From Aureicoccus marinus (lineage in GTDB: Bacteria; Bacteroidota; Bacteroidia; Flavobacteriales; Flavobacteriaceae): a DNA stretch of 64,000 nt. The notes under the pieces were generated by a model. The model did not search any database. It saw only the letters and a list, made by a program, of their open reading frames with translations, and had not been told where the DNA came from. Location of the stretch: assembly GCF_002954325.1 (NCBI RefSeq), contig NZ_MQVX01000001.1:2161383-2225382 (forward strand). The letters run 5' to 3'. The translations under genes and the position numbers were made by a program. Positions 7,654 to 60,909 of the stretch are shown here, one piece after another. Within the stretch, counting starts at the first letter, position 1; the number at the start of each line of letters is the position of its first letter.

Positions 7654-7819
7654 ACTTTGAGTGCTTTGTGGAAAGATACGACGAAATCAACTGTAGGAAA
7701 AGATCAGCATAAAGAACAAAAGACCCCCTTTAAGCGAAAAATCCATGCGGTACATCGGTTTCCACTAGGGCTCCTTCAGATCAAGTTGTTCCTTAGGTAT
7801 AGTCCTAATACAATCCATT

Positions 7820-8410
7820 GTGTACAGAACAATCCTTTCGCTTCTCCTGTTTTGGCCACTTCTCGTCTTCGGACAGCGGGTAGAAATTCCCAAATGGCAT
7901 TCCGTACAAGAGACTTATTGGCAAATCAGTGTAGATTACCTCGCCATCGATGACTCCGGTCGCTTTATCAGTGACCCGGTCAATGTCGAAGATCATTGGC
8001 AAATCTTGCCTTATCCGAGTCGTATTGCTTTGAGTCGCCGTACCGGAAAAAATCTCTCTTTTCAAGTTCAAGGAGCCTATTCCGTGTATTCAGAAGGAAA
8101 GATTGTAGACGGAAGTGTACTCGACAACAACCGGAACTACTGGAGCATGGATGTCAATGCAGTCTTTCACTTCAACAATTTTCTGGGATGGGGACGATTT
8201 TTTGATCCCTATTTAGGCATTGGCACGGGCTTTACCCGAGCAAACAAAAAAAGTCAAGGCACTTTGAACACAGTTGCTGGAGCCCATTTTTGGATCTCAG
8301 ATCGCTGTGCCATCCTACTGAATTCTACCGGCAAATTTTCGATGGCCATTCAAGGAAACAACCACTTAGTTCACAGCGCCGGGCTGGTCTACCGTTTCGC
8401 CATAGAGTAA
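7820..8410 (+). CDS. Small secreted protein, probable outer-membrane beta-barrel
   Basis: I do not recognise a named family. The 196-residue product starts at a GTG (7820) with a clear signal peptide ending near VFGQ. It then has alternating hydrophobic/polar strands with many aromatic residues and ends in GLVYRFAIE, an aromatic-rich C-terminal strand typical of small OmpA- or OmpW-like barrels. Only about 165 residues remain after cleavage, enough for a small 8-strand barrel. Just one base separates its stop from that of the convergent DUF3352 gene. The barrel call is an inference from sequence pattern. Confidence 0.6.
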   Translation: MYRTILSLLLFWPLLVFGQRVEIPKWHSVQETYWQISVDYLAIDDSGRFISDPVNVEDHWQILPYPSRIALSRRTGKNLSFQVQGAYSVYSEGKIVDGSVLDNNRNYWSMDVNAVFHFNNFLGWGRFFDPYLGIGTGFTRANKKSQGTLNTVAGAHFWISDRCAILLNSTGKFSMAIQGNNHLVHSAGLVYRFAIE

Positions 8411-8411
8411 T

Positions 8412-10390
8412 TTAGAAACGCTTTTTACGCACCAACTCTCCTTCAGGGTTGTAGTACTTCCAAAGACCTATTTGTTTATCCTTGCGGTAGCGCCCTTTGA
8501 GTTTGAGGGTGCCATCCGGATAATAGGCCTCGTATCGGCCGTGCTTTTTGCCATCCTTCAGGTGCACTTTAAATCGCCTTTTACCGGAGGCGTATTTCTT
8601 TTCAAAAGACTTGGCATTCAGATCCGAAGGGTAAATCCTCGGCACATTAAAAACGGCATCGGTGAGTAGCTTGGCGCACTCGAAGCCGGTTGATCAAAGC
8701 GGAGCTGCTGTTGCCTAAACTGACTTTTCTTCTTGACTTCTGAAGCATCCTGGTAGTTGATTACCAAGGCGCTTTCAAAAAGATTTTCTTCCGGTAAAAG
8801 CTCAAATCCTACTTGTGGAAAGCAGATGATATAGTCCTTGTTTTTCTGCATCTGGGCCCGAGTCTCTTCATTGGCCAAAGCATACATATTCTCGTACAGT
8901 ATGGGCGTATTGACATAGGCAAAAACAGCCGACTCCTCCTCAAAATAAGTAATGAATTTTTGGTAGTCCTCCGAGGTATCCAGGGTCTCGATTTCGACGT
9001 AGGCATCGATAATTCCCTTTAGTGTATTGGGTTGATTGCTAAAGACCACATAATCATCGATGATGGTGTAATAGGGCTTGTCGAAATCGGCAAAGAGTTT
9101 CCCGAGAAAGAGTTTAAAAAACCCTTTGATGGACAAGAAGTGTATGCGGTGATCCCGGTAATCGATGGCCTTGAACTTGACCGGAGTCCGCTTTTTGATT
9201 TGCGATAAGATGAAACCGAGTTTCTTTTCGGCCAGTTCAACACTATCGGTCTTGATCACCAGGGCCAAATCATTCGTTCCTTTTTCGATGGTCGACTGAA
9301 TTTGTAAAACCCCGATTTCATTACCAATCCAACTGGCAAAGTCCTGTTCTACATCAATCTTGAGGAATTTCTCAATGTCTTTTACCCCTTTGTCGTAAAG
9401 CTCAAAAACAGCCGGATCTGCCTGTTTTAGCTCCTGAAAATTCTCGTGAAAAGTCGGGAAATCTTCAAATCCATAACTGAGATAAACGGCGGTTCTCTTG
9501 GGTGCAATTGAGGCGATTGTCCGCTTAGCAGTCCCTGATTTCTGAAGCGCTTTTAAATAGGTTTGGTTGTTTTCGGTAATGTTAGTAAACCCCCGAGCAC
9601 TGATGGTACTCGGATCGCTAAGATCAAAACGAAAGCCCGAAAACAAATAGTTTTCGGTCAAGTGCTTGATCGCCGGGGGAGGATTGGTAGCAAAACTCAG
9701 GGAGTAGTCATCCAGGTAATCATACTGGATGTAAAGGTGAATATCTTCGCTGGTGCCCAGCTCTCCTTTCACTTTTAAAAAATTCAGGTCCCGTCCTAGC
9801 GTTGGCGATTGGTACTGATCGATAGAGGCTTCTACCAAGGTGTGCGTATAACTCGCGATCATCTGATTCCGAACAAAGGAGAGGTAGAGAATATTACCGG
9901 TTTGTTTACTGAAAACCTCCAGAATTTCCTGATCGTTATAGGCTCTCTTACTGAGGGTAAAGTTGTCGTTTAAGATTGTTTCCAAATAGGTTTTCAGCAT
10001 TTTCAGCTTCGCGATTCGTTTGAGATCCACGGTGTAGAGAATGCCGTATTCGGACTGAGAGATCATGTGGATCGACAGATACAGAGATCGATCCCCAAAG
10101 AGATCAAAGAGGTTCTTCCGGTTGTTAAACACCGTGTCCATCTTTTGAATACCCTCGGTAATCTCACTGAAATAGGCATTTCGGTTCAAGTGCTTCCAGG
10201 CATCACTCCCGCGTATTTCTTGCCAATTTTCGACAGGCTGATCACTTTGGAGCACAAAAACGGCATCCTTGGGAATCAGATAAAGGGGCTGCAAATTGTT
10301 GGATGGGGATAAGACAAAAACGTACAACAGATAGGCAGCATAGGCCATAATAACCCCTAGCAGTACGAACAGGATTCTTTTTTTCGTCAT
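8412..10390 (-). CDS. DUF3352-type exported protein with C-terminal MORN-like repeats (frameshift near 8670)
   Basis: The first ~575 codons give a protein with one N-terminal membrane anchor (ILFVLLGVIMAYAAYLLYVF) and a long exported region resembling DUF3352 proteins of flavobacteria. That frame runs into non-homologous sequence and stops at 8618. A second frame resumes at about TDAVFNVPRIYPSDL and contains MORN/YwqK-like repeats (HGRYEAYYPDG, GLWKYYNPEGE), ending at 8412. Adding one base near 8671 (gcgccaagc to gcgccaaagc) fuses the two. Both parts belonging to one family is from memory of flavobacterial homologues. The function is unknown; the protein is probably anchored in the inner membrane with its bulk in the periplasm. 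Confidence 0.72.
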
Positions 10391-31737: not shown

Positions 31738-33246
31738 TTGAAAAGAATCTTCACACTACTCGGACTGCTTTTATGCAACAGCCATCTGCTGTTCGCCCAG
31801 CAAACACCAGCTAAATTCGTCTCTAAAGGAATTGAATCCCTGCCTATGTTTAGGGAATTACTCGCTTTGGCGAACGACGCTCATTTTCCGACAGATATCG
31901 AAAAGAACATCCAGTGGTGTGAAGAAGCTTTTGCTAAGAGAGGATTTACAAGTCAACGCCTGCAAACCCCAACCGTTCCCCTGCTCTTAGCCGAACGCAA
32001 AAGCAAAAAGAAAAACGCTAAAACCGTCCTGATCTATTTGCAGGTCGATGGGCAACCAGTGGCACCTCCCTTCTGGAACCAGAAGAACCCTTACAAAGCA
32101 GAATTAATGGAGCAAGATGCGGAGGGGAATTGGGCTCCAATTTCCTGGGAACGCATAGGCCAAAATCCCGATCCGGACTGGCGAATTTTTGCCCGATCAG
32201 CTTCGGACGCCAAGGGACCAGTAGCCGCCTATTTGACAGCCCTGGATATGATTGCAGATGAAAAGAAAAAGATTCCTTTTCACATGAAAGTAATTCTGGA
32301 CTTTGAAGAAGAATTGGGATCGCCACAGTTGCCGAAAGCAGTCGTTGAAAACCGGGAGGCTTTGGCTGCCGACATGCTGGTCATCTTTGATGGGCCCCGG
32401 CATTTGAAAAACGAACCCACCCTTACCTTTGGAGCACGAGGTATTTCGACCCTGACCCTGACCCTGTATGGGCCTATCCGGCCACAGCACAGCGGTCATT
32501 ACGGGAACTATGTACCCAATCCTGCACTACGCCTTTCTCAATTACTCGCCAGCATGAAAGACGAAGAAGGCCGAGTAACCATTCCAGGCTATTACGACGG
32601 GATTTCTTTGGATTCCGATACCAAAGCCATCCTGCAGGCCGTGCCAGACGACGAAGAAAACATCCGTAAAAAAATGGGAATAGCGGCCACAGACCGAGTG
32701 GCGAATACCTACCAAGAATCTATACAGTACCCTTCCCTTAACATCAGAGGACTGTCTTCGGGTTGGGTAGGATCCGAAAAAAGGACCATTATCCCTTCTT
32801 CAGCCACCGCTGAGATTGACATGAGACTGGTTATTGAGAGTGAGCCTGAGCGACTTATTCAGCTGGTAAAAGACCACATAAAAAATGAAGGGTTCACCTT
32901 GCTTGATCGCCCTCCCACCGAAGAAGAAAGAGAACAAAAAAGCCGATTGATCCAAGTAGAATCAACGACTTCCTATTTGGCTTATCGCACCGAAATGGAC
33001 TCTGAAATTGGGGTATGGCTGACTAGGGCCCTGACCAAATCATTCGGAAAATCCCCTATTCGACAGCGCACCTCAGGAGGAAGTATTCCGATTTCTCCCT
33101 TTGTCAACGAATTGGGAATTCCCGCCGTAACGGTACCTACAGTAAACCGAGACAACAACCAGCACAGTCCAAACGAGAACATTCGCTTGGGGAACTACTT
33201 TGATGGAATCCGCACGATTTATGGAATCTTAACCGAAAAAATTTAG
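31738..33246 (+). CDS. Secreted M20-family metallohydrolase with an altered first metal ligand
   Basis: A 502-residue protein with a signal peptide (ending LLFAQQT) and the M20 peptidase fold with lid domain. Motifs: SDAKGP (~158), DFEEELGSP (~193) and a late TSGGSIPISPF. Where M20 enzymes have GHxDVxP, this protein reads LQVDGQP (~102), so the first zinc-binding His appears to be Gln. The rest of the site is kept, so activity may persist with changed metal use. Homologues with the same motif occur in Bacteroidota as I recall. The start is TTG at 31738. The stop shares TTAG with the anti-sigma-like gene. Confidence 0.83.
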   Translation: MKRIFTLLGLLLCNSHLLFAQQTPAKFVSKGIESLPMFRELLALANDAHFPTDIEKNIQWCEEAFAKRGFTSQRLQTPTVPLLLAERKSKKKNAKTVLIYLQVDGQPVAPPFWNQKNPYKAELMEQDAEGNWAPISWERIGQNPDPDWRIFARSASDAKGPVAAYLTALDMIADEKKKIPFHMKVILDFEEELGSPQLPKAVVENREALAADMLVIFDGPRHLKNEPTLTFGARGISTLTLTLYGPIRPQHSGHYGNYVPNPALRLSQLLASMKDEEGRVTIPGYYDGISLDSDTKAILQAVPDDEENIRKKMGIAATDRVANTYQESIQYPSLNIRGLSSGWVGSEKRTIIPSSATAEIDMRLVIESEPERLIQLVKDHIKNEGFTLLDRPPTEEEREQKSRLIQVESTTSYLAYRTEMDSEIGVWLTRALTKSFGKSPIRQRTSGGSIPISPFVNELGIPAVTVPTVNRDNNQHSPNENIRLGNYFDGIRTIYGILTEKI

Positions 33247-33965
33247 GGCAATTGTTCTAGGAGTTCCTGAGCCTCTTTCTTTTTGAAAGTTCCGGGATGC
33301 TCCACCACACGCTTAAAAGCATCTTTCGCTGCTTCGGTCTCTTTATTTTTAAGAAGAACAAGTCCGTAATACCAATGAGTCTCAGCTTTAAATTCATTCT
33401 GAGGAAATTCCTCCATCAACTCCTTTAAAACCGATTCGGCTTTCTGATTTTGTTCTGTATTTAATAGAGTCATAGCCCAATAGAACTGAATTGAATCACT
33501 TGGATTTTGCTTGAGCAACTCTTCAAATAAGACACTAGCGCCTTGGTAATCTTCCCTATCGTATTTTGAAAAGGCTCTTTGAAGGATGGAATCCGGTGAG
33601 TCCTGGCCCCGAGTAGTAGGCACTAAGACATTGGGATAAGGGTCAAAATAATCCTGGTAAAGGTCTTCGCCTGGTGCCCATTGGTAAACCGCAAAAATAC
33701 CGAATAGAATAGCTACTACAGCCGCAGCTTTCCACCACACAGGTTCGCTTTTTGAAGCTACCGAGCTAAGGGTTGTGAGTTGTTTCTTGAGCTCTTCCCC
33801 TTCCTGGACGATCAAAACCTCAGCAAGGCTCTTGTACTCCTGGTACTCCTGGGCAAAATCTTCTTCAGCTGCAATACGCGCAGCAAAAGCCTGCTCTTCT
33901 TCGTCTGAGAGAAGAGATAACATCCGCTTGTGAAATAGCTCGGTATTGTCGTCCTGCTTATTCAT
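33243..33965 (-). CDS. Membrane anti-sigma-like protein with TPR periplasmic domain
   Basis: A 240-residue protein: a cytoplasmic N-terminus rich in acidic residues (~1-75), one transmembrane helix (AAAVVAILFGIFAVYQWA, ~80-97) and a C-terminal TPR-like region (SKYDREDYQGASVLFEELLKQ, then AETHWYYGLVLLKNKETEAA). It overlaps the upstream sigma factor by 8 bases, the usual layout for a sigma/anti-sigma pair. The TPR part probably senses or docks an envelope protein and releases the sigma factor. This role is inferred from context and topology. Confidence 0.72.
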   Translation of the reverse strand: MNKQDDNTELFHKRMLSLLSDEEEQAFAARIAAEEDFAQEYQEYKSLAEVLIVQEGEELKKQLTTLSSVASKSEPVWWKAAAVVAILFGIFAVYQWAPGEDLYQDYFDPYPNVLVPTTRGQDSPDSILQRAFSKYDREDYQGASVLFEELLKQNPSDSIQFYWAMTLLNTEQNQKAESVLKELMEEFPQNEFKAETHWYYGLVLLKNKETEAAKDAFKRVVEHPGTFKKKEAQELLEQLP

Positions 33966-34491
33966 GGATCAGGCTTTTCAGTTTCTTTAAACACCTCGAC
34001 CGAGAACTCTTGATCGTGTTAATGTCTTTGTAGTCGGTCATTTTTTTAATCTCTTTATCGGTCAACCCCCGGTAGTAATGCAAGCGCAGTAATTGCCTGC
34101 AGCTGTCACTTAATCGTTCGAAGGCTTTTTTTAGGGCCAATTGCTCTTCACTCAAATTCTCCTTCTCAATTTGATAAATTGCCTCCTTGGGTTCGATCTC
34201 TTCTCGCGAAACCAGTTGAGGTCCTCGAAAATGAGCAGCTGCTTTGTTCTTGCCTATTGCGAATAAATAGGTCTTTATACTGCTGCTTTCCAGTTCCAAT
34301 TGCTTGAGCACAAAATTCTGAAACAAGGACACCACAGTATCCTGATAGAGGTCTTCGAGTTGATCCCTAACAATTACTCGATCCGAGAGGTAGGCCACAA
34401 AAGCATCCTTGTATTGGATATACACTTGTTCCAGGGCCTTTCGATCGCCATCTCTAAGCCTTTTTTGAAGTTGTGCTTCTTTCTTTTCCAT
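33958..34491 (-). CDS. ECF-type RNA polymerase sigma factor
   Basis: A 177-residue sigma-70-family protein. Region 2 (LEQVYIQYKDAFVAYL, then DQLEDLYQDTVVSLFQNF) and region 4 (FERLSDSCRQLLRLHYYRGLTDKEIKKM) are clear; there is no region 1 or 3, typical of ECF factors. It is followed by the overlapping anti-sigma-like gene and is divergent from the DUF4412-like gene 100 bases away. Its regulon probably includes the adjacent envelope genes, but no binding site could be identified with confidence. Confidence 0.88.
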   Translation of the reverse strand: MEKKEAQLQKRLRDGDRKALEQVYIQYKDAFVAYLSDRVIVRDQLEDLYQDTVVSLFQNFVLKQLELESSSIKTYLFAIGKNKAAAHFRGPQLVSREEIEPKEAIYQIEKENLSEEQLALKKAFERLSDSCRQLLRLHYYRGLTDKEIKKMTDYKDINTIKSSRSRCLKKLKSLIHE

Positions 34492-34597
34492 TAGTCAGGT
34501 GAAATCTACAAAGGTTAACAGCCATTTCAAAAAATTGATTGCCTTGTTAACCTTTCTTCTTTTTCTGCAACCAAGAGGAAAATCAATTAGAATACTT

Positions 34598-35941
34598 ATG
34601 AAATCATTAAAATTCCTAACACTTCTTATCTGTCTCTTGGGGGCCTTCCAACACACAGAGGCCCAGTTTTTGAAAAAACTGAAGAAAAAGGTCAAAAAAA
34701 CAGCCGAAGAGACTATCGAGCGCAAAGCCGAAGACAAAACGGCGGAAACCACCGAAAAAACCATTGACGGACTCTTTAAAAAGAAGAAGAAAAAGAAGAA
34801 AAAATCAAAAAAAGGTGGACAGGATCAGCAAGAAGGTTCAGATACCAAGTCCTATGGTAGTGCCAATTTAACAGGCCCTAATCACGGACCAGTAGAAATC
34901 TTTCAGGTAGCTCAACCAAAAGTCGAAGTAAATGCCGGTGCAGGATCTACTCGAATTAGTGCCTGGTGGAACACCCACGGTACAGACACCTACGATATGT
35001 TTGACCTTCGGGTCAACCAGGTAATTGATGAGAAGACCACCTTTCCTTTAACCTTATCGGTTCCCGGAGACGCAGAACTCAAGATTTACTACGACGCTCT
35101 TTTAGGAGCTTATCTTTCACAAGACGATTGGCAGCGAAGTGAAGACCCTAATTTTGAATTGGTCCACGAAAACCCACCTATCAACGGAACAGTGACCCTT
35201 CAGGCCATTGACCAAAATAGTATAGCCTTTGAATTTTCTGGGGGAGGTTTTAGCGGAACCATTGCGGTCAGTGAGCCGATCTGGTCTGAGGTAAAAGATC
35301 AAAAACAAGCCTCACCAAAACCGAAAAAAGAAGAAGCCGAACAGGTTTTGACTTTAAAAGACGGAGAACCTGGGCTTTACGAGTTCAACTATGAAATTGC
35401 CACAGTAATTACCAGTACGGATGGAGAAGTATACCCGATCTCCTACCTAATCAACGATCAAACCAACTACTTTGGGATGATGGTTGATATGAGTCAATTT
35501 GAGGATGGTGAGGTACAAGGGTCATCGGTGATTGTCATGCAAAAAGACCAAACCCGTGTTTTTGTAGACACTCCTATGATGAAGATTCAATTGAATCAAA
35601 GCATGGGTGATCAAGGAAAGAACCCCGTTCCAGAAATGGACCAATACAACTTCTCGAAACCCATCAAAACAGGAAGCTCTCGCGTTATCGCCGGCTACAC
35701 TTGTCAAGAATACCTAATCGAGCACGAACAAGGTACTCTTACATTTTGGGCGGCTCCAGAGTTGCACATACCCAACTGGATGTTTGGCAGTCAAAGTGTC
35801 GTTGAACAAACCGGAGTTCTTGGATTTGTCTTGGCCTTTTCTGCTACTGATCAAAATGGTACAACAAAAAGTGAAGTAAAATCCATCAATGAGAACTATT
35901 CTTTGAAGATCGATGCTTCGGAGTACAAAAAGATGTTTTAA
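34598..35941 (+). CDS. Secreted DUF4412-like protein with Lys-rich segment
   Basis: A 447-residue protein starting at ATG 34598 with a signal peptide (LLICLLGAFQHTEAQ). A long basic stretch (KKLKKKVKKTAEE, then a run of nine Lys near residue 65) follows, then a large beta-rich region and a C-terminal DUF4412-like domain (SSRVIAGYTCQEYLIEHEQGT, FWAAPELHIP). An earlier start at 34499 would place a second hydrophobic segment before the real signal peptide. DUF4412 proteins are envelope proteins of unknown function. The gene heads a co-directional cluster and faces the sigma factor gene. Confidence 0.72.
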   Translation: MKSLKFLTLLICLLGAFQHTEAQFLKKLKKKVKKTAEETIERKAEDKTAETTEKTIDGLFKKKKKKKKKSKKGGQDQQEGSDTKSYGSANLTGPNHGPVEIFQVAQPKVEVNAGAGSTRISAWWNTHGTDTYDMFDLRVNQVIDEKTTFPLTLSVPGDAELKIYYDALLGAYLSQDDWQRSEDPNFELVHENPPINGTVTLQAIDQNSIAFEFSGGGFSGTIAVSEPIWSEVKDQKQASPKPKKEEAEQVLTLKDGEPGLYEFNYEIATVITSTDGEVYPISYLINDQTNYFGMMVDMSQFEDGEVQGSSVIVMQKDQTRVFVDTPMMKIQLNQSMGDQGKNPVPEMDQYNFSKPIKTGSSRVIAGYTCQEYLIEHEQGTLTFWAAPELHIPNWMFGSQSVVEQTGVLGFVLAFSATDQNGTTKSEVKSINENYSLKIDASEYKKMF

Positions 35942-36679: not shown

Positions 36680-37240
36680 ATGAAAGATATTTTACAATCG
36701 ACTACTTACGCTCTTATGCTGTTGCTATTTTGCTGTTGCATGGGTGGTACACATGAACAAGAGGCTTCAACGGAAGAGGAGGAGGTGCCATTGTTTCAAG
36801 AAAATATGGCCAATAAAGTTGCGGAAATGAACACCAGTCTATGTGCTAACATTCCAGCTGAACTTATTATGAGTTACCATCCTTATGGCAAGCAAATCGA
36901 AACCGAGAAGATGAAGGGGTCTGGCCTGGACAGGGGATGCCTCATCAAAGTCCGCTATGGCAAAAAAGAGCACAATTTTGTACAAGGCCAAGTTCAGGCT
37001 TGGGCGGTCAAAACCAGCAACCCCTTCTTTCAGTACAAACCGGAGAGAAATCCCAGTGCGTATCAGAAGGTCGATGGTCTGGGAGAGAAAGCAGTTTATT
37101 TGGCCTACCAACGACAACTCCTGGTTCTCAAAGAAAGAGTCATGTACTCCATGGTTCCTCCAAGCACCGGAAAACTAAGTGATAATGGAAAAGAAATTAA
37201 AGATTTGGCCATAGCAATGGCTAAACACTACAAGTTGTAG
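36680..37240 (+). CDS. Putative lipoprotein
   Basis: A 186-residue product with a hydrophobic, Cys-rich signal segment (LMLLLFCCCMGG), probably lipidated at one of the cysteines. The mature part has LCANIPAELIMSYHP near residue 55 and DRGCLIKVRYGKK near 90, echoing the preceding lipoprotein (the Cys positions and a YG-K pattern). No family is recognised. It belongs to the same co-directional envelope cluster facing the sigma/anti-sigma pair. Confidence 0.66.
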   Translation: MKDILQSTTYALMLLLFCCCMGGTHEQEASTEEEEVPLFQENMANKVAEMNTSLCANIPAELIMSYHPYGKQIETEKMKGSGLDRGCLIKVRYGKKEHNFVQGQVQAWAVKTSNPFFQYKPERNPSAYQKVDGLGEKAVYLAYQRQLLVLKERVMYSMVPPSTGKLSDNGKEIKDLAIAMAKHYKL

Positions 37241-37257
37241 CGGTCTTGATTTTGCCT

Positions 37258-38067
37258 ATGAAACCATTTTCTCTATTTCTATTCGTCTTGCTTACAGGGC
37301 TGTTTGCTTGTAATAAAAAGCAGTCAAACATCCCTTCCAAGGTCAGTGAGGATTCGCCGGTCACTAGAGAAGTCCCGGTACCGATCGATTCTTCAGCAAC
37401 CCTAAGCAATACCTACCGGGAAGAAAATTGGAAGCCCCAAGATGGACAATTCTATTTTTCAGAATCCTACCATTTTGAGCTAATAACCCCAGAAACCGAA
37501 GCTCCAAAGGAGTTCGGTTTTTACCTCGACCCCGAAAGTGGCAGCATCTTGTTAGAAAAGTACCTAACGGGATTTCAGGACGAGATGACCGATTGGTTAA
37601 TCCTTCGTCCAAACGGCCTTGTTTTACAGGGTTTTACCGATGAGTTTGGGAAAAAGAAATTGCTCGTACACCATCTACATAAGCACCATTATTACACCCA
37701 AACAAGGCCTTATGCGCAAGCAGACTTCGAAGCCTTTTGGACCAAGAAGGAGGAGACCAAAGAGTTTGGCCCCAATAAATACTACCAGAAAAGTCACCGA
37801 GGAGTCCACTACCAACGGCAATACCCCAAGACTGAGGAAAAGGCAGACCTGTATTTGGCCAAGACCCGCTTGGCCACCCATGAATTGTATTATATCGATC
37901 GACTACTTCCCGAACTGGGAATGCCCTACCGCACGGACTATGGCGAAGTGCTCGATCAAGGTATTCTCGTGCTTAAAGAAGTCTACGCCCAGCCCAATGG
38001 TCAACCCCTCGGCTTTCAGCTAAAGGAGATCATGGCCAGTGAATACCATATTCAATTGCCTGAGTAA
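37258..38067 (+). CDS. Putative lipoprotein
   Basis: A 269-residue product starting at ATG 37258 with a lipobox signal (VLLTGLFACNKK). The mature protein is rich in aromatic and charged residues (HKHHYYTQTRPY, PNKYYQKSHRGVHYQRQYP) with no recognised domain. An alternative start four codons upstream (TTG 37246) is less likely. The gene lies 20 bases before the VWA lipoprotein gene and is probably co-transcribed with it. Confidence 0.66.
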   Translation: MKPFSLFLFVLLTGLFACNKKQSNIPSKVSEDSPVTREVPVPIDSSATLSNTYREENWKPQDGQFYFSESYHFELITPETEAPKEFGFYLDPESGSILLEKYLTGFQDEMTDWLILRPNGLVLQGFTDEFGKKKLLVHHLHKHHYYTQTRPYAQADFEAFWTKKEETKEFGPNKYYQKSHRGVHYQRQYPKTEEKADLYLAKTRLATHELYYIDRLLPELGMPYRTDYGEVLDQGILVLKEVYAQPNGQPLGFQLKEIMASEYHIQLPE

Positions 38068-38087: not shown

Positions 38088-41000
38088 ATGACCCCTACCC
38101 ACTTTGATAAAGACCGAAGAAAATTTCTAGTACAAATGGTACTCGGCAGCATGGCCGCCAGCTTGCCCCTCAGCTTACTGGAATCCTGTAAAAAGGACCA
38201 ACTGCCCTTGATTGAAGGAAGCGGAATGGTTCCCTTTAAAATCTGGGAGGAACTCCTCATCGCACTCGAAAGCAGCCCGGATTTTCACCCTGGAAGGATC
38301 CGGCGTTTGGTCAAGGCTAAAGATCCGGAAGCCCTATTTAATTATGTCCGTGACGAAATCGTATTGATTCCTTCTTCACCTGATTTAAGGTATGAAGGAA
38401 AAGCCATGAAACATGGAATTCCAGGGGTAATGCGAACCGGAAAGGCTACCCTACGTGAAAAAGCAGAACTCCTTACCCAACTCTTTCAGGAGATTGGAAT
38501 GGAGGCAGAAGTAATCATGGAGTCTTGTGATTTAACCGAAGAGCAATTAATCGATTGCTACTTGCGGGATTACGAAACCGATTTTGCCCCCAATATCAGT
38601 GATGCCCAATTTGAACGCTGGTTTGATCAGTTGGAAGTCTCCGATGAAAAAGTCGACTTGCACGAAGAAATTGACCAAGAAGCGGCTAAACTCAGTAAGG
38701 ACATTTTAAAAAATGTGGCCTGGGAAGACCAGGTAGAAAAACAGAAGATTCGCTGGGCTGAAAGTCAGGTAGCGACTGTCAAATTCAAGCAAGATGGGCA
38801 AGAAAAGTATGCTCACTTACTTGATCCTAAGGTCGATTTTGGCCAATTGCGCAATCCATCGGCAAAAACCTACAGTGGTGGACTTACTTCCATCAGCAAA
38901 GATAAGATCAAGCTTGAATTGATCGGAAGACATTCCCGTGACCCTCGTGAAAAAATTTCTCTTTTGAAAGGAGAATGGGAATTGCTCGATTTACTGGGGA
39001 AACAAGTGAACATTGCTTTTCTGAAAGACTTAACGATTAGCGAAATATCGACAAAAAGTATCAACCAAATTTCTTTTTTCACTCCCTCCTTCTCTTTACA
39101 AGGGGTAGATGCGGAAAGGTCTTTCTTGGAAGAAAATTCATTTCTGGGCGAGCCGATTACGATCGAAGGGGATCAAATAGCAATCAATCCTGAAAAAGGC
39201 CCCACCTTGGAGGAGATTCTCAAGAACGCACCTTCGGCTACAGTAAGTGATGTGGCCTCGCTTGAATGCAAAGCCAAAGCCTTCAGCTTTCCAAGAGTCC
39301 GTCTCGAAGTTTTTGCCAAGGATAAAACGGGGAAGCCGGTTGAAGGTTTACAAACGACGGATTTTCTGGTAAAAGAGGATGGTCAAACGGTCCAGGCAAT
39401 CCTCAGAAACAACCAGTTAAAACCAAAAATCCTCATTCTTTCAGATTCTTCCTTAAGCATGCCCCATACGTACCGAGGTACTTATATGAAGGCCTTCAAC
39501 ACCCGTTTGGAAGAGGGGGTTCGCCAAAAATATCCTGCCGCCGAGGTAAAGTTCTGGTCAACAACGAGTGCATTGTATTCTTCCTTATTGAAGGCATCTC
39601 AAGAAAATGTAGATCTTATTCTCTATTGTACGGATGGGCATAACTCGGACAAACTCAATGAGGAAGACGCGGTTATCTATGCGACCGGAGCACCGGCTCT
39701 GATTCTCGATGTAGAAGAGAACCAATCCGAAAGCTTTGGACATATGGCCCGCTTAACGGGCGGAGAAGTCCTTCCGGCCAAAGATCAGGAGGTCGTTCTG
39801 CAGCGCCTCATTGCTTATGTAGAACAAATGGAAATTCCACCCTACATCTTGGAATTCAACAGCAGCTCTCGATCGGAGCACATGGCGAAGGTCGAATTGC
39901 AAAAATCCTCCTTAACAGCGGAGGCACCTTATGAATTTGGCGCTGCGCACCCTGCAGAAGGTGGGCTGATATCCCTGCACCTGAAGGTCAGCATGGGCTA
40001 CAGATACTCCTGGACCAAGGTGTTGGCCGGAGCCGACGAGATTCAAATCGAGAAATTGGTTTACAACAAACGCGGCCTGAAAAAGAGTTTCCGAGAAATG
40101 AGAAATGAAGTACGGGGCTTTTTACTCGGCGGAGCTCAATTGTATATAGAATCGGAAGGCCCCACGATGGCGACAGCGCTCACGGATGTCTTGAAGGCCC
40201 AACTGAGCAATCGGAAATGGGGAGAAGCCTTTATGTCTGGTCAATTGAAGGAGGCCAAGGAAGAGTTTGAGAAAGGAAGCGCTAAGCTTTCGGGCTCCAT
40301 GCTTTCCTTACTTACCCAGCCCAAAGATACAAACCCCAGCAAGGGACTAACCTTTGTCGCTGGATATCGTTTTGCCCTGGTAAAAACCCTTTGGCCCGTA
40401 GAAGATCAGGCAGGGAGTAACAGCTATGATTACTTTCTTTCTTCGAATTACAGAACCTTGGGCAAAGACCCCAAAGAAGAGTTCAAAAAAACGGCAGCCA
40501 TCACTGCCCAGCTCGCCTTACGAGAACACATTCTCTTCAAAAACTCCACCTATTCTTCACTTGAAAAGTCTTCTTTAATATCCAATATTGGTTTGAATGA
40601 AATCGAGGACAAAGAGAAAGCCCAGAGTTTACAAAAAAGGATTTCCACCTCTGGAATGCGGAAGCGTCTCTTCCCGAATAAGCAATACACGGTATTCGAT
40701 CAAAACCTAAGCTCCTTAGCTTACTGGCAGATAAACCCCAAAAGCGGGGAACTCTACGGGATGCTTTTCGACGGAACCGGAGGGGGTAAAAACCCCATCC
40801 CGATGGATCCTCAATTCGAAGAGGGTATGTCGATCATGATGAATATTGTGGGTATTCTGGAACGTATTGTAACCATCGCATCAGCGGGTAGGGCAACCAT
40901 GTTTGCTAATCCTGCCGCGGGAGTTTCCCTGGCCATTGTAGCCAAATACGGTGTTACCCTGGCTAAAATCTACGGTATTGTCACCCAAACCATTGTGGTC

Positions 41001-41174
41001 ATGGATACCGCTGGTATGGACGATCGGATTAAAAGAGAATTGCAGATTCTAGCCTGTGAAGTTTATAAGGAGATTGTTTTCGCCATGTTTGGGAATGCCG
41101 GAGCCGTATTTGCCGGATTGGAATCCCTCATCGGGATGATGTCCAATTCAAAAAGTCCTTTTAGTTGTGGTTAA
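38088..41174 (+). CDS. Large Tat-type lipoprotein with transglutaminase-like and VWA domains
   Basis: A 1028-residue protein. The N-terminus DRRKFLVQMV...LLESCKK combines a twin-arginine motif with a lipobox. Residues ~60-160 resemble a transglutaminase-like fold (TGKATLREKAELLTQLFQEIGMEAEVI), but the usual catalytic Cys position is not Cys. A carboxypeptidase/VWFA-leader-like segment follows (TGKPVEGLQTTDFLVKEDGQ), then a VWA domain with MIDAS DSSLS (~454) and TDG (~517). The last ~110 residues are unusually hydrophobic and Gly/Ala-rich. I know no protein with this exact layout. It overlaps the CHAT protease gene tail-to-tail by 14 bases, at the end of the sigma-linked cluster. Confidence 0.7.
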   Translation: MTPTHFDKDRRKFLVQMVLGSMAASLPLSLLESCKKDQLPLIEGSGMVPFKIWEELLIALESSPDFHPGRIRRLVKAKDPEALFNYVRDEIVLIPSSPDLRYEGKAMKHGIPGVMRTGKATLREKAELLTQLFQEIGMEAEVIMESCDLTEEQLIDCYLRDYETDFAPNISDAQFERWFDQLEVSDEKVDLHEEIDQEAAKLSKDILKNVAWEDQVEKQKIRWAESQVATVKFKQDGQEKYAHLLDPKVDFGQLRNPSAKTYSGGLTSISKDKIKLELIGRHSRDPREKISLLKGEWELLDLLGKQVNIAFLKDLTISEISTKSINQISFFTPSFSLQGVDAERSFLEENSFLGEPITIEGDQIAINPEKGPTLEEILKNAPSATVSDVASLECKAKAFSFPRVRLEVFAKDKTGKPVEGLQTTDFLVKEDGQTVQAILRNNQLKPKILILSDSSLSMPHTYRGTYMKAFNTRLEEGVRQKYPAAEVKFWSTTSALYSSLLKASQENVDLILYCTDGHNSDKLNEEDAVIYATGAPALILDVEENQSESFGHMARLTGGEVLPAKDQEVVLQRLIAYVEQMEIPPYILEFNSSSRSEHMAKVELQKSSLTAEAPYEFGAAHPAEGGLISLHLKVSMGYRYSWTKVLAGADEIQIEKLVYNKRGLKKSFREMRNEVRGFLLGGAQLYIESEGPTMATALTDVLKAQLSNRKWGEAFMSGQLKEAKEEFEKGSAKLSGSMLSLLTQPKDTNPSKGLTFVAGYRFALVKTLWPVEDQAGSNSYDYFLSSNYRTLGKDPKEEFKKTAAITAQLALREHILFKNSTYSSLEKSSLISNIGLNEIEDKEKAQSLQKRISTSGMRKRLFPNKQYTVFDQNLSSLAYWQINPKSGELYGMLFDGTGGGKNPIPMDPQFEEGMSIMMNIVGILERIVTIASAGRATMFANPAAGVSLAIVAKYGVTLAKIYGIVTQTIVVMDTAGMDDRIKRELQILACEVYKEIVFAMFGNAGAVFAGLESLIGMMSNSKSPFSCG

Positions 41175-44100
41175 GTCGAAATAAGGACCGAACGGGATGA
41201 CCTACTGCCTTTCTGAGTTCTGGGTTTATGTATAATAAAACCACAAACAACAGTAGAGGAAAAAAAGCGACTATCCACCAGTAGTTGGTACCCTTGAGGT
41301 CAATGGGAGCTGTATCCCCCAACAAAACAACCCCAGCCCAATAATAGGGGTGTTTTAATCGGGAATTATCCGTACTTTTTAGGTATTCCAGCTTTGCTTT
41401 TCGCAAAGCTTCACCCTTGCTAAGTCCATCTTTGAGACCCCGGTAAAAATTCACCATGATCTCCGAAGTATTTTTGTCGGGAATCTCCCAAAGACTCGCG
41501 ACTAAACTAGGTACTCCGGCATAGGTAAAGGCACGAGAAGCATTGACCAGACCTTCTCCTCTGACCAGTTCGCCAGAACCCGTATTACAGGCACTAAGTA
41601 CTGCCAAATCAGCATTTAAACGCAAATTGTAAAGCTCAGACACATAAAGTTCACTGGTGCCATCCTGGTCAGGTGCAAAAATTAAGCTAGAGAATTCCCC
41701 ATCGATATTATTAATCGTAGAATGCATCGCCAAATGCAAAACTTGGTAATCCATGGCTTTTGTTTTGAACTTGCCAATATTTGCTTGATCTCCGATAAAC
41801 ACCTCAGAGGGGAATAGATCTGCAATGGTTTCGGCTTCATAGCTGGCCCCCACAAGTGCCCCATAACTCCCGCGATTAAGGATATTAACAGATTCATCAT
41901 AATATTTTGGTGCAAAGACCCCGATGAGTCTTTTATCAGAAGGACTTGCCCTTCTCTGTTCCTTCCACAAAAGAAGGGAAGGGGTATAACTCATTTCAAG
42001 ATGCTCCACCAGATAGTCTCCATTTGAGTCAACCAAGGCTTCAAAAGGCAAGAAATAAAGGGGACCATCCGGGATAACGACCAATTGATTAAGACTTTCT
42101 TTCTCCAAAAGGTCCTGAAGTAAGATTCCGAAGACCTCCGCGGCTTTTTGGTTATACCCACCCAGACCTGGGTTTCGGAGCCTCTCCAAAAGGGGGGCTA
42201 GCTGATCCTCCACTTGCTCTTTAGTCGTAAGTTGCCGCAACTGAATACCAGAACGAGTCAGCAAAAAAGCATATAAATTCTGATCGCCTAGGACGTATTG
42301 GATAATTCCTTGACCCTCTTGCAAAGAGCTAATCACCTCTTTTAAATTAAAAGATTGGGATCTTTGGGCAAAGTAGGCCGGATACTTCTGGGCATACCAT
42401 TTTTCAAGCTCTTCCAGGTCAGACTCTACTGTGGACATCTGGGCTTTGAATAAGGCAATCTTTTCTTCGTCCTTAATCTGATTTAAATAGAGCTGTTTTT
42501 TGATGAAATAGAGCTCCGAGCGCAGCCCATCTTCTCGTTTGAGAAGAGAATCAGGAATATTGAGGTTCTTTCTTTGTTGGCTCCCCAAAAAACGCTTCCA
42601 GACGGTTTTGGATTGGTTTTTTATAACTCTTTCTATTCCTGATTCCAGTTGGTCCTGACCGGCCCCCAGATTGGCGCGCAAGAGCTGTTCATGTAAACGG
42701 GTTACCGTCTGGTATTTTTGGTCGTTAAAAGGAAGATGACTAAAGCTTCCTCAAAAATATCGGCCGCCAAAAGTGATATATTCTTTCCTTTTTCATTAGA
42801 CTTTTCTACCTCCTTAAGCTTAGGCATGGTCTGATAACGGTCGCTGGCTTCAATCAAAAAATCCAAAACAGATTGACTCCTATAAGGTTTGATATCGTCA
42901 AATTCGATCTTGTCTAAGGCTACGCGCTGACTTGTATCCCGAAGCATGAGGTGAATCGCTGCCTTGTAAGAGTCATCGACAGCAGAATATTCCTCCCTCC
43001 TATGCTGTATCCCAGCCAGCTTGTCGTAAAAGTGAATAAGACTATAGCTGTCTTTCCTTGTCCGCGCATAATCCATCCAAGAATTGGTGAGTTCCAAAGC
43101 TTTTCCCGTCTCTGATTTATTCAAGTGATAATCGATCAGCAGTAACTTATCTCCTAAGATAAATTGAGTCACATCTCCTTCTTTGGTAACCGTTAGAATT
43201 TTTTGGGTATACCTCACTGCTTCTTCTGGATCCTTGTTTTTCAACAAATCCGCCATCCTGCGGAGGTTGGCCATGTGATAATTCCGGACAAAGTCAAAAA
43301 AATAAGGCAAGTCCCTAGGATTATTGGCCGGGTCTTCTTTGTCAAAATTTTCAATAAAATCAAGGGATTTTTGAGTAAAGTCAATCGCTGAAGCCGTATC
43401 CTTCTTCATCAAAGCCAAACGAGCCTGATTGTACCACAAACCCATCTGGGTTCGACCCTTAAATGTTTCATTAAACCAGTACTTTTCTATACTCTCTTTG
43501 TTTTCATTTACCAGTTGCTTGGCTTTTAAGATGTACTGTTCGGCCCTTTTGTAATCTCCATGTTGGCTGTACCAGACCGACATCGCTCCGAGTGCAATAT
43601 TTAGGTAACTGCGGTCCTTTTCTTCCGGCATCCCTTCCCAGCGACGGACCACATTCTTATAACAGTCCAGTTCTAACCAGTAGTAGCCCAAGTGATCAAA
43701 GGTATTGGCCAATTGGTGCTCCTGAATAGCCGCTAATTTGTTGAACTCACCCTGATAAGCGATATTATTGGCAATCGCCTCCCTTTTGACTTCGATTCCT
43801 TTTCGACTCTCTCCTTTATTAGCGAGCGCATTCCCTTTTTCGAACAAAGAAATAGAAATGGATTTGTGATGAGGACCAAGGGCTTCCTTCAAACTCTTGA
43901 CCGCCAGATCAGAATAGAGCAAAACGGAATCTTGCTCGTGCTCATAGGCCCAATACTGTTGTGCGTTCAAATAGAGCTGTCCCATTAGGCGCGCTTTATC
44001 GGCACCAGCTTGATTGGCCCACTTCCGCCCTTGTTTGGCCAGTTCTATCCCCTTTTTATAGTCCCGATTTTCAGCCGCAATCATTCCCTGAGCTCCTAAA

Positions 44101-44327
44101 ATTTTGGCTTCAAGGACTGGATTCACCTCTGTACTCTTCTCTTTTTCAACCAAGAAAAATTCCAAGGCTTCCTTTAGTCCCTTGTGTCCTGAGTATAAAT
44201 AGGAATCGAAGTAAATGGAATCAGCGTCCTCCAGGCGCTCGACGAGAATTTTGGGGTCTTCTTGGGCCCTACTAAAAGCAGATGCAAGCACCAAAAGAAA
44301 GAGGGTACAGGTCGTCCGAATGGGCAT
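41161..44327 (-). CDS. Exported, membrane-anchored TPR-CHAT protease (frameshift near 42743)
   Basis: The 5' frame encodes a signal peptide (LFLLVLASAFSRAQ) and TPR repeats, and stops at 42702. The 3' frame encodes the rest of the repeats and a CHAT (caspase/separase-like) domain with catalytic His in LHLAMHST and Cys in VLSACNTGSGE, plus the downstream GVPSLVASLWEIPD. A transmembrane helix (WWIVAFFPLLLFVVLLY) lies near the end. Adding one base in the AAA at 42742-42744 (plus strand) joins EEAF to SHLPFNDQKYQ and gives ~1055 residues. The protease should sit in the periplasm, anchored at its C-terminus. Its substrate is unknown. Confidence 0.85.
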
Positions 44328-58314: not shown

Positions 58315-59367
58315 ATGAAGACCATCAAAGGACCGGCCGTATTTCTGGCACAATTCATCGACCAACAACCTCCGTTTAACAGTTTAGATGGGCTCTGCCA
58401 ATGGGCAGCCGATCTGGGGTACAAAGGCATTCAGATCCCTACCTGGGAATCATTTTTGATCGATTTAGATCAAGCAGCCGGAAGCCAGATGTACTGTGAC
58501 GACCTCAAGGGGAAAATCAACTCCTACGGACTAGAAATCACCGAACTTTCCACCCACTTACAAGGGCAATTGGTTGCCGTGCATCCCGCTTACGACGTGA
58601 TGTTTGACAATTTTGCACCTGATGCCTACAAGAACAATCCGAAGGCCCGTACAGAGTGGGCCGTAGATACGGTTAAGAAGGCGGCAACGGCGAGTAGAAG
58701 ATTAGGACTCAATGCCCACGCTACTTTTTCAGGAGCTCTGCTTTGGCATACCGCACACCCTTGGCCACAACGACCTCCGGGACTGGTCGAAATGGGCTTT
58801 GAAGAATTGGCCAAACGCTGGATGCCCATCCTGAATCATTTTGACGAAGAAGGTGTAGATGTGTGCTACGAAATCCACCCCGGGGAAGACCTCCACGACG
58901 GAGATACTTTTGAGCGCTTTTTGGAAGCGACCGGCAATCACAAGCGTGTGAACATTCTTTACGACCCAAGCCACTTTGTTCTTCAACAACTCGACTATAT
59001 CGAATACATCGATCACTACCACTCCTTTATCAAGGCTTTCCACGTAAAGGATTCAGAATTTAACCCAACCGGTAAAAAAGGAGCCTTTGGTGGGTACAAC
59101 GATTGGGGAGACCGCGCTGGACGCTACCGTTCGCCCGGTGATGGGCAGGTCGATTTTAAGACGATCTTTTCTAAACTGACCCAATACGGCTGTGATGTGT
59201 GGGCCGTCATGGAGTGGGAATGCTGCATCAAGAGTCCGGAACAAGGCGCGCGAGAAGGAGCCAAATTCATCTCGGATCACATCATCGAAGCCACCGAGAA
59301 GACTTTTGACGACTTCGCCGGCTCTGCGACCGACCCAGAAAAGCTGAAGAAAATCCTCGGGTTATGA
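58315..59367 (+). CDS. Cytoplasmic TIM-barrel sugar isomerase/epimerase-like protein
   Basis: A 350-residue xylose-isomerase-like barrel without signal peptide. Signatures: DLGYKGIQIPTWE, LNAHATFSGALLW, CYEIHPGEDLHDG, NILYDPSHFVLQ and AFHVKDSEF; the Glu, Asp, His and Glu metal ligands are in these segments. It overlaps the first DUF1080 gene by 4 bases, so both are translated together. It may be the second isomerase/hydratase step of keto-sugar processing, acting in the cytoplasm in contrast to the lipid-anchored paralogue upstream. Confidence 0.85.
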   Translation: MKTIKGPAVFLAQFIDQQPPFNSLDGLCQWAADLGYKGIQIPTWESFLIDLDQAAGSQMYCDDLKGKINSYGLEITELSTHLQGQLVAVHPAYDVMFDNFAPDAYKNNPKARTEWAVDTVKKAATASRRLGLNAHATFSGALLWHTAHPWPQRPPGLVEMGFEELAKRWMPILNHFDEEGVDVCYEIHPGEDLHDGDTFERFLEATGNHKRVNILYDPSHFVLQQLDYIEYIDHYHSFIKAFHVKDSEFNPTGKKGAFGGYNDWGDRAGRYRSPGDGQVDFKTIFSKLTQYGCDVWAVMEWECCIKSPEQGAREGAKFISDHIIEATEKTFDDFAGSATDPEKLKKILGL

Positions 59368-60104
59368 AAACACAGTTCTTAAGCACCCTTTTTGCACTAT
59401 CCTTATTGGTTGTTTCCTGTAAAAAGCAAAACGAAAAACAAGAAGAAAACCCCACCGACACCAAAATAGAGGTGGCCGAATTCCGGGAGCTCTTTGACGG
59501 AGAGAATTTTACCGGCTGGAGACTCTACAGAGGAGACGAACCTGGCAAGGCCTGGAAAATTGAAGAAGGGGCCCTGGTATTTTACCCCCCGACTGAACGA
59601 CCACAAGGCGAAAGCTACAACCTGGTTTCGGAAGAAGAATTCACCAATTTCGAACTCAGTCTGGAGTGGAAAATCCAGAAAAACGGCAACAGTGGCATCT
59701 TTTGGGGTGTCTACGAGTCAGAAGAATTTGGCCAGCCCTATCAGACCGGGCCGGAGATTCAGGTTCTGGATAACCAAGGACATCCGGATGCACTAAATGG
59801 AGAAGATCGGCAGGCAGGAGCCCTGTACGATATGGTACCCCCTTCTGAAGACCACACCAATGCCGCCGGAGAGTGGAACGAATGCATTTTACATGTCAAC
59901 CACGAAACCGGACAGGGATGGGTAAAGATGAACGGAAAGTTGATCGTTACCTTTCCGGTAAAGGGCGACGGATGGGATAATCTGGTAAAAGAATCGAAAT
60001 TTGCGGACTGGAAAGGCTTTGGAGACTACCCCAAAGGGCGTCTGGGCTTGCAAGACCACGGAGATACCGTTGCCTACAGAAAAATTAAAATTAAAGAATT
60101 ATAA
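59364..60104 (+). CDS. DUF1080 (3-keto-disaccharide hydrolase-like) lipoprotein 1
   Basis: A 246-residue lipoprotein (LLVVSCKK, Cys ~19) with the DUF1080 concanavalin-like jelly roll. Motifs: FDGENFTGWRLYRG, ISLEWKIQ-like FELSLEWKIQKNGNSGIFW, GPEIQVLDNQGHPD, WNECILHV and LGLQDHGDTVAYRKIKI. DUF1080 proteins cleave 3-keto-glycosides by elimination or hydrolysis, which matches the dehydrogenase in this locus. It overlaps the TIM-barrel gene and is followed one base later by a second DUF1080 gene. Confidence 0.9.
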   Translation: MKTQFLSTLFALSLLVVSCKKQNEKQEENPTDTKIEVAEFRELFDGENFTGWRLYRGDEPGKAWKIEEGALVFYPPTERPQGESYNLVSEEEFTNFELSLEWKIQKNGNSGIFWGVYESEEFGQPYQTGPEIQVLDNQGHPDALNGEDRQAGALYDMVPPSEDHTNAAGEWNECILHVNHETGQGWVKMNGKLIVTFPVKGDGWDNLVKESKFADWKGFGDYPKGRLGLQDHGDTVAYRKIKIKEL

Positions 60105-60105
60105 C

Positions 60106-60909
60106 ATGAAATACCAACTCCTGCTTCTGCTGGCCGTGGTTTTTATCGGCTGTCAAAACAAGACAGAAGAAGAAGCTCCAACAGCAGATCAATCCACTGA
60201 TACCACCGAAATGTCATCAGAAAAAGAACCAACCAAACCCGAAGAAACGGAACTGTACCAACCGGTTCCACCTCGTGTAGTGCCTGGCGTAGCCGGGGCA
60301 CCACCTAGCGATGCCATTGTCCTTTTTGACGGGACTAATTTTGACGCTTGGGAGAGCGCAGTCGACAGTTCTGCCGTGCAATGGCATCTCAACGGAGACG
60401 GCAGCATGACCGTCAAAGACAAAACTGGTGACATTCAAACCAAGCAGAGCTTCGGAAGTGTTCAGCTCCATATTGAATGGCGTTCTCCTGCAGAAATCCA
60501 GGGCGAGAATCAAAGCCGGGCAAACAGCGGGGTCTTTTTACAAAGCCGCTACGAAGTTCAGGTGCTTGACAACAACGATAACCCGACCTATGTCAACGGC
60601 CAAGTCGGATCCATCTACAAACAATCCATTCCCATGGCCATGGCTTCTGTCCCTTCAGGGCAATGGAACACCTACGACATCATTTTTCACGCACCTGAGT
60701 TTGACGAGGCCGGTGAGCGCACCAAGGCAGGAACCATCACGGTCATCCACAACGGTGTTCTGATTCAGGATCATTTTGTACTGGAAGGAACCACCGAATA
60801 CATCGGCTGGCCAAAAAATATTGCGCACGGGAAGGCACCGCTTAAACTGCAGGATCATCAAGACAACAGTCGGGTGAGTTACCGCAACATCTGGGTACGC
60901 GAACTATGA
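60106..60909 (+). CDS. DUF1080 (3-keto-disaccharide hydrolase-like) lipoprotein 2
   Basis: A 267-residue lipoprotein starting at ATG 60106 (lipobox VVFIGCQN). A Thr/Glu/Pro-rich linker (~20-60) precedes the DUF1080 domain: LFDGTNFDAWES, LHIEWRSPAEIQ, NSGVFLQSRYEVQVLDN and LKLQDHQDNSRVSYRNIWV. It is a divergent paralogue of the gene just upstream. The two may split substrate classes or split the lyase and hydratase steps. It overlaps yicC by 4 bases, which couples the sugar operon to housekeeping genes. Confidence 0.9.
   Translation: MKYQLLLLLAVVFIGCQNKTEEEAPTADQSTDTTEMSSEKEPTKPEETELYQPVPPRVVPGVAGAPPSDAIVLFDGTNFDAWESAVDSSAVQWHLNGDGSMTVKDKTGDIQTKQSFGSVQLHIEWRSPAEIQGENQSRANSGVFLQSRYEVQVLDNNDNPTYVNGQVGSIYKQSIPMAMASVPSGQWNTYDIIFHAPEFDEAGERTKAGTITVIHNGVLIQDHFVLEGTTEYIGWPKNIAHGKAPLKLQDHQDNSRVSYRNIWVREL

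What the first reader, a model, noticed from the sequence alone, without database searches (positions are those of the whole stretch)
38088..44327. Tail-to-tail pair: Tat-VWA lipoprotein and exported TPR-CHAT protease
The TPR-CHAT protein has a signal peptide, His and Cys catalytic motifs (HLAMHS, LSACNTG) and a C-terminal membrane helix, so the protease should work in the periplasm. Known TPR-CHAT proteases are mostly cytoplasmic (for example the Cas7-11-associated one). The neighbour is a large lipoprotein with an inactive-looking transglutaminase fold, a VWA domain and a very hydrophobic C-terminus. Their stops overlap by 14 bases. A cleaved-partner relationship is a testable inference, not shown by the sequence.
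Basis: partly seen in the sequence, partly recalled or inferred. Interest (0 to 1): 0.72.

Follow-up and report, generated by a model that had tools for sequence, protein, structure and literature searches.

The report
Exported CHAT protease with sigma switch

Summary
The two genes exist, with the stated features and a 14-base stop overlap. However, the TPR-CHAT gene is split by a one-base indel into two ORFs, whereas homologues are one ORF. VWA homologues are rare (17 of 397 Flavobacteriaceae genomes); 14 of these also carry CHAT, and in 5 the two genes lie within about 10 kb. The much stronger partners of CHAT were outside the given coordinates: an ECF sigma factor (33958-34491) and a single-pass TPR protein (33243-33965), here called ASG (putative anti-sigma factor). 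ASG and CHAT co-occur in 156 of 397 genomes, against 7 and 15 with only one of them. Immediately outside the membrane helix, ASG carries a near-invariant Arg (or Met, or Lys). Over 94 ASG-CHAT pairs this residue co-varies with one CHAT position near the active site (R with D 75, M with E 14). About half of the ASGs without a nearby CHAT have lost it. A shared promoter-like motif lies upstream of the sigma gene and of VWA operons, once in trans. Best reading: CHAT is the extracytoplasmic (site-1-like) protease for the anti-sigma factor, and the lipoprotein/VWA operon is output. No cleavage is shown; no paper describing this triad was found.

The parts
33243..33965 (-). ASG: 240-aa single-pass protein, N-terminal about 75 aa cytoplasmic, TM about residues 76-97, extracytoplasmic TPRs; putative anti-sigma factor and proposed CHAT substrate
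   Evidence: TPR Pfam hits; TM; only full-length ASG in the genome; gene overlaps the sigma gene by 8 bases
33606..33611 (-). candidate cleavage site R119-G120 in the juxtamembrane linker of ASG
   Evidence: 4th most conserved of the ASG columns; R/M/K co-varies with CHAT position 402; often lost where no CHAT is nearby
33958..34491 (-). ECF-type sigma factor (177 aa)
   Evidence: TIGR02937 above cut-off, 2.4e-15
34490..34519 (-). promoter-like motif GTTAACCTT-N14-GACTAAT abutting the sigma start codon
   Evidence: best PWM hit of the window (17.7), PWM trained outside the window and VWA loci; the pattern matches once in the 3.05-Mb genome, here
34546..34574 (+). divergent promoter-like site: exact GTTAACCTT, N13, imperfect CAACCAA, 23 nt before the ATG at 34598
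   Evidence: read; below the PWM threshold; spacing as in relatives
34598..35941 (+). DUF4412-family exported protein, first gene of the divergent operon (ORF opens at 34499; ATG at 34598 more likely)
   Evidence: PF14371; the same family is first in the VWA operons of L082 and L083
35953..36597 (+). putative lipoprotein
   Evidence: lipobox-like N-terminus; no Pfam hit
36680..37240 (+). putative lipoprotein
   Evidence: lipobox-like N-terminus
37246..38067 (+). putative lipoprotein (273 aa)
   Evidence: lipobox-like N-terminus
38088..41174 (+). VWA lipoprotein (1028 aa): Tat-like signal with lipobox, TGase-superfamily fold, VWA domain (residues 444-582), helical C-terminus
41161..44327 (-). 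TPR-CHAT protease gene, split: TPR half 42702-44327 with signal peptide, CHAT half 41161-42681 with C-terminal TM
42745..42753 (-). site of the one-base indel that splits the gene (intact homologues exist)
   Evidence: frames and tblastn with L127
41722..41724 (-). catalytic His (H320 of the CHAT half)
   Evidence: conserved in all CHATs with that column aligned
41587..41589 (-). catalytic Cys (C365 of the CHAT half)
41476..41478 (-). D402 of the CHAT half (SLWEIPD), candidate determinant of the P1 specificity
   Evidence: co-variation with ASG residue 119

Best explanation
The window carries an envelope-signalling module: ECF sigma factor, single-pass TPR anti-sigma factor, and a membrane-tethered exported TPR-CHAT protease. 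At rest the anti-sigma factor holds the sigma factor at the inner membrane. A signal, perhaps sensed through the two TPR domains, activates CHAT, which cuts the anti-sigma factor after R119, just outside the membrane (a site-1-type cut). Further proteolysis frees the sigma factor, which transcribes its own operon and the divergent DUF4412/lipoprotein/VWA operon from a GTTWACC-N15/16-CAYTAAW promoter. VWA is an output gene. Shown: gene linkage, genome co-occurrence, residue co-variation, loss of the site in several CHAT-less ASGs, shared motif. Inferred: anti-sigma activity, cleavage, activation, further proteolysis and promoter activity.
For: Of 56 CHAT genes with neighbourhood in hand, 52 have ASG and 48 have sigma plus ASG in the same stretch, often abutting CHAT. 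In 397 genomes: both 156, ASG only 7, CHAT only 15, neither 219. The own genome has one full-length ASG and one CHAT. ASG residue 119 is R/M/K in 93 of 94 pairs; R-D 75, M-E 14, K with D 2, E 1, G 1, H-D 1. On the CHAT tree position 402 changes 3 times, each with a change at residue 119. In 10 ASGs without a nearby CHAT the site is kept in 5 while nearly all TPR columns are kept in 10. Two ASGs without a local CHAT match an unpaired CHAT elsewhere in their genome (G027 M/E; G082 R/D). Catalytic His and Cys are kept in all CHATs aligned there. Topology places both proteins outside the inner membrane. Motif: EM score 468 against 309-318 shuffled; upstream of VWA operons in L082 and L083 and directly upstream of VWA in Spongiivirga L039/G256, where CHAT lies on other contigs; 5 of 6 matches in that genome are at VWA or the CHAT locus.
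Against: No cleavage, binding or expression data. ASG has no recognised anti-sigma domain. Met-Glu pairs form one clade, so they are essentially one event. Position 402 is one helical turn from the separase residue that binds P1 Arg (equivalent to K670 of Sb TPR-CHAT, PMC9729208), not the same column. Some ASGs without a nearby CHAT keep R, M or K (L217, L218, L158, L285, L287, L288, L295). Craspases cut non-conserved sites (PMC11106740), so CHAT proteases need not read P1. The -10-like half of the VWA-operon motif in this window is poor. The window's own CHAT is frameshifted as read.
Confidence: 0.62

Rival explanations
1. CHAT cleaves the VWA lipoprotein, activating or shedding it; the sigma/anti-sigma pair merely regulates both genes.
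For: Adjacent here, cis within about 10 kb in 5 genomes, both predicted to be outside the cytoplasm.
Against: VWA occurs in 17 of 397 genomes and 3 of these lack CHAT; most CHAT genomes lack VWA. VWA operons elsewhere sit beside HTCS-type hybrid regulators (L035, L036) or other genes, as expected of an output under exchangeable regulators.
Confidence: 0.1
2. The conserved Arg/Met of ASG is a docking or structural residue: CHAT binds and controls the anti-sigma factor without cutting it.
For: Linkage, co-variation and loss without CHAT would look the same; Craspase recognition is largely structural (PMC11106740).
Against: His and Cys kept in all CHATs with those columns; the R/K/M set followed by G/S/D/E in a juxtamembrane linker resembles a scissile site.
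Confidence: 0.17
3. The triad is a defence or regulated-cell-death device like Craspase: CHAT cuts the anti-sigma factor on infection and the VWA/lipoproteins are effectors.
For: Same logic as Csx29-Csx30-CASP-sigma (PMC10028731).
Against: No PADLOC hit for any part tested; protease lies outside the cytoplasm; operon encodes lipoproteins; no defence-island signal looked for beyond this.
Confidence: 0.08
4. Accidental adjacency of unrelated genes.
For: VWA and CHAT are on different contigs or far apart in many genomes.
Against: Cis clustering P = 2e-6 under a simple Poisson estimate; conserved VWA-operon/sigma/ASG order in L082, L083, L126, L090, L091.
Confidence: 0.03

Closest known systems
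Craspase: Csx29 (TPR-CHAT) - Csx30 - CASP-sigma (RpoE) of type III-E CRISPR (PMC10028731, PMC9729208, PMC11106740)
   Same: TPR-CHAT protease, a protein that inhibits an ECF sigma factor as substrate, sigma factor encoded in the same locus; profile match to Csx29 at 1e-7
   Different: Here the protease is exported and membrane-tethered, the inhibitor is a single-pass membrane protein with TPRs, no Cas7-11 was seen, the candidate cut site is conserved (R/K/M) and chromosomal copies are common
DegS/RseP-RseA-sigmaE and RsiW-sigmaW (regulated proteolysis of anti-sigma factors; from the discussion in PMC10028731)
   Same: Single-pass anti-sigma topology with a proposed first cut outside the membrane
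   Different: Proposed site-1 protease is a clan CD separase-like cysteine protease instead of DegS
Eukaryotic separase
   Same: CHAT is its closest bacterial relative (PMC9729208); P1 Arg preference proposed here
   Different: Acidic residue one helical turn from separase D2151; TPR domain, export signal and TM helix
HTCS-type hybrid two-component regulators
   Same: Lie beside VWA operons in other Flavobacteriaceae (L035, L036)
   Different: Different sensor-regulator; they replace the sigma module there

Membership tests
CHAT protease (PF12770) | domain match and His/Cys dyad | tested here: met
   1e-60; HLAMHS and LSACNTG; dyad conserved in relatives. Gene interrupted in this genome
Craspase / type III-E signalling | TPR-CHAT together with an ECF sigma factor and its inhibitor in one locus | tested here: met
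   (inhibitor role inferred)
Craspase / type III-E signalling | Cas7-11 (gRAMP), CRISPR array and Csx30 homologue | not tested
   No dedicated search for Cas7-11 or Csx30; none among the Pfam-scanned neighbours
Membrane anti-sigma factor | encoded next to its ECF sigma gene, single TM, short cytoplasmic N-terminus | tested here: met
Membrane anti-sigma factor | recognised anti-sigma domain sequence | tested here: inconclusive
   No convincing Pfam, NCBIfam or PDB match (DUF3379 weak in 3 of 15)
Membrane anti-sigma factor | binds and inhibits the sigma factor | not testable with these tools
   needs biochemistry
Site-1-type protease of an anti-sigma factor | cuts the extracytoplasmic juxtamembrane linker | not testable with these tools
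   Indirect support only:
VWA domain protein | VWA fold with MIDAS DxSxS | tested here: met
Transglutaminase superfamily (VWA N-terminus) | fold | tested here: met
   Z 10.2 LapG, 9.7 TglA, 8.2 TGase; sequence support weak
Transglutaminase superfamily (VWA N-terminus) | catalytic Cys conserved | tested here: inconclusive
   In A6 the expected site reads TPREKA/TLREKA with no invariant Cys; His207 and Asp210 are invariant

The most novel reading that the evidence does not exclude
A phylum-wide envelope-signalling class in Bacteroidota uses separase-family (CHAT) proteases as site-1 proteases whose P1 specificity co-evolves with their membrane anti-sigma factors, and the CRISPR Craspase arm (Csx29-Csx30-CASP-sigma) is a captured, cytoplasmic relative of this older sigma-control system.
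Probability: 0.3. Interest if true: 0.85.

Novelty: new variant of a known kind. Interest (0 to 1): 0.7.

Why it matters
About two fifths of the Flavobacteriaceae genomes sampled carry these CHAT proteases. If the mechanism holds, it gives them a substrate, a cut site and a readout, explains why they are exported, and supplies a chromosomal counterpart to the Craspase sigma switch. It also gives a simple rule (R with D, M with E) for matching proteases to substrates.

Tried and rejected
VWA as obligate CHAT partner: rejected by the distribution. My first idea that D402 is the separase S1 Asp itself: corrected after PMC9729208 (separase D2151 corresponds to Trp+8, D402 is Trp+4). Full-length CHAT profile against PDB gave only TPR hits among the rows shown; the CHAT-only profile gave Csx29. 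Anti-sigma domain searches gave nothing convincing. PADLOC: no hits for the four proteins tested. Literature searches found only the Craspase paper linking a CHAT domain to an ECF sigma factor; the ECF reclassification paper I tried is not held, so prior mention of this gene context cannot be excluded. Other frameshifts in the window: ORF pairs that looked split were distinct genes. A promoter motif for the more distant sigma class was weak (301 against 266-280).

Full report
What is there. The window lies in a Flavobacteriaceae genome (3.05 Mb, 87% complete, with named relatives). VWA ORF 38088-41174 and the CHAT gene are real and their stops overlap by 14 bases. The CHAT gene, however, is two ORFs (TPR half 44327-42702, CHAT half 42681-41161) in different frames. 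The nearest homologue (L127, 45% identical) aligns continuously across the break, so a one-base indel lies near 42745-42753. Both halves are otherwise intact and keep their motifs. I saw no second frameshift among the window ORFs I checked, so this is either a recent mutation or an assembly error.

Domains. Residues 444-582 of the VWA protein model as a VWA domain (Z 13.5, rmsd 2.6, 136 aligned; whole model pLDDT 63.5). Residues 37-312 model as a transglutaminase-superfamily fold (pLDDT 74; Z 10.2 to LapG, 9.7 to TglA, 8.2 to a TGase; Foldseek alone weak). The family alignment shows no conserved Cys at the expected nucleophile, agreeing with 'inactive-looking'. The C-terminus is helical in the model but low in confidence and only moderately hydrophobic.

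Co-occurrence test. VWA homologues (about 34% identical) occur in 17 of 397 family genomes. Fourteen also have CHAT, against 157 of the other 380 (Fisher p = 0.002). In five the two lie within about 10 kb (0.2 expected). In two more, the Dive100 bin L041 and G369, VWA sits by sigma and ASG and no CHAT is in the stretch in hand. So the pairing is not accidental, but it is loose: G029, G282 and G354 have VWA and no CHAT. In other genomes VWA operons sit next to HTCS-type hybrid regulators.

The stronger association. Gene neighbourhoods of 56 CHAT genes show that 52 have a single-pass TPR protein (ASG), 48 of them with a detected ECF sigma gene, in the same stretch; CHAT often abuts ASG, convergent or in tandem. 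Across 397 genomes both are present in 156, ASG alone in 7, CHAT alone in 15, neither in 219 (p = 3e-82; genomes are related, so this overstates independence). At phylum level ASG occurs in 45 of 395 genomes across several families and classes. In the window the sigma gene (33958-34491) and ASG (33243-33965) lie 7 kb from CHAT, with the divergent DUF4412/lipoprotein/VWA operon in between. The genome has one CHAT and one full-length ASG. In L082, L083, L126, L090 and L091 the VWA operon is likewise divergent from the sigma gene, with CHAT beyond ASG where the contig reaches it.

Candidate cut site. ASG residue 119 lies in the linker between the TM helix (about 76-97) and the TPRs, and is one of the four most conserved columns. 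Over 94 ASG-CHAT pairs it is R (75), M (14), K (4) or H (1). It matches CHAT position 402 in the SLWxxxD segment: every R and H with D, every M with E, and K with D, D, E, G. M-E is one clade (support 0.99), but on the CHAT tree position 402 changes three times and each change goes with a change at residue 119. ASGs without a nearby CHAT form a natural control: of 10, only 5 keep R/M/K (two of these by an ambiguous alignment), while nearly all TPR columns are kept in 10 of 10. One of them (G386) sits beside a CHAT remnant and carries Ile. Two further ASGs without a local CHAT match an unpaired CHAT elsewhere in the same genome (G027, G082). Exceptions that keep the residue without a nearby CHAT are L217, L218 and L158, and in other families L285, L287, L288 and L295 (CHAT elsewhere in those genomes not tested). 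Caution: the separase residue that binds P1 Arg corresponds to K670 of Sb TPR-CHAT (PMC9729208), which by the alignment is four residues further along than position 402.

Promoter motif. An unsupervised search upstream of sigma genes gave GTTWACC-N15/16-CAYTAAW (score 468 against 309-318 in shuffles). A matrix trained without the window and the VWA loci finds it as the best site of the window, abutting the sigma start (34490-34519, minus); the exact pattern matches once in the genome (reversed-pattern control also 1). It lies upstream of the VWA operon's first gene in L082 and L083. In Spongiivirga (L039/G256) it lies 50 nt upstream of VWA although CHAT is on other contigs; five of six matches in that genome are at VWA or the CHAT locus C15. 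In the window the divergent operon has an exact GTTAACCTT (34546-34554) at the right distance but a poor second half.

Mechanism. The best reading is site-1-type proteolysis of a membrane anti-sigma factor by an exported, tethered separase-like protease, with the lipoprotein/VWA operon as output. Shown: associations, co-variation, motif. Inferred: anti-sigma activity, cleavage, trigger, further proteolysis, promoter function.

Comparison. The closest known logic is Csx29-Csx30-CASP-sigma (PMC10028731), where a TPR-CHAT cuts a sigma inhibitor. The CHAT profile matches Csx29 (1e-7). Differences are export, membrane tether, membrane inhibitor, and a conserved candidate site where Craspases cut non-conserved ones (PMC11106740). 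No held paper describes this triad, though the held library is partial. I call it a new variant of a known kind (protease-controlled anti-sigma factors).

Noticed in passing
window 42745-42753: One-base indel splits the only CHAT gene of this genome; real mutation or assembly error not resolved.
   Followed up: partly
L221 (G386:C38) 7800-9470: Sigma gene, ASG and CHAT all look decayed together (sigma 123 aa, CHAT remnant 113 aa) and the ASG site residue is Ile: a module being lost.
   Followed up: partly
L219, L220, L157: ASG kept without a detected sigma gene or CHAT nearby and with the R/M site lost or ambiguous; these TPR proteins may have acquired another role.
   Followed up: no
L107 and L130: Two CHAT genes in tandem served by one sigma/ASG pair.
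   Followed up: no
L137, L123, L143, L115, L120, L134: A different motif (about CCTTATA-N17-TTGTTAC) upstream of the more distant sigma class; weak over the whole class but strikingly similar in these six.
   Followed up: no
L032, L033, L035, L036, L086: VWA operons next to HTCS-type hybrid regulators instead of the sigma module.
   Followed up: partly
G256:C12:580638-580667: A sixth exact promoter-motif match in the Spongiivirga genome, not inspected; a possible further regulon member.
   Followed up: no
window 59364-60909: Two tandem 3-keto-disaccharide hydrolase domain ORFs (PF06439) overlapping by about 100 bases as opened; probably tandem paralogues.
   Followed up: no
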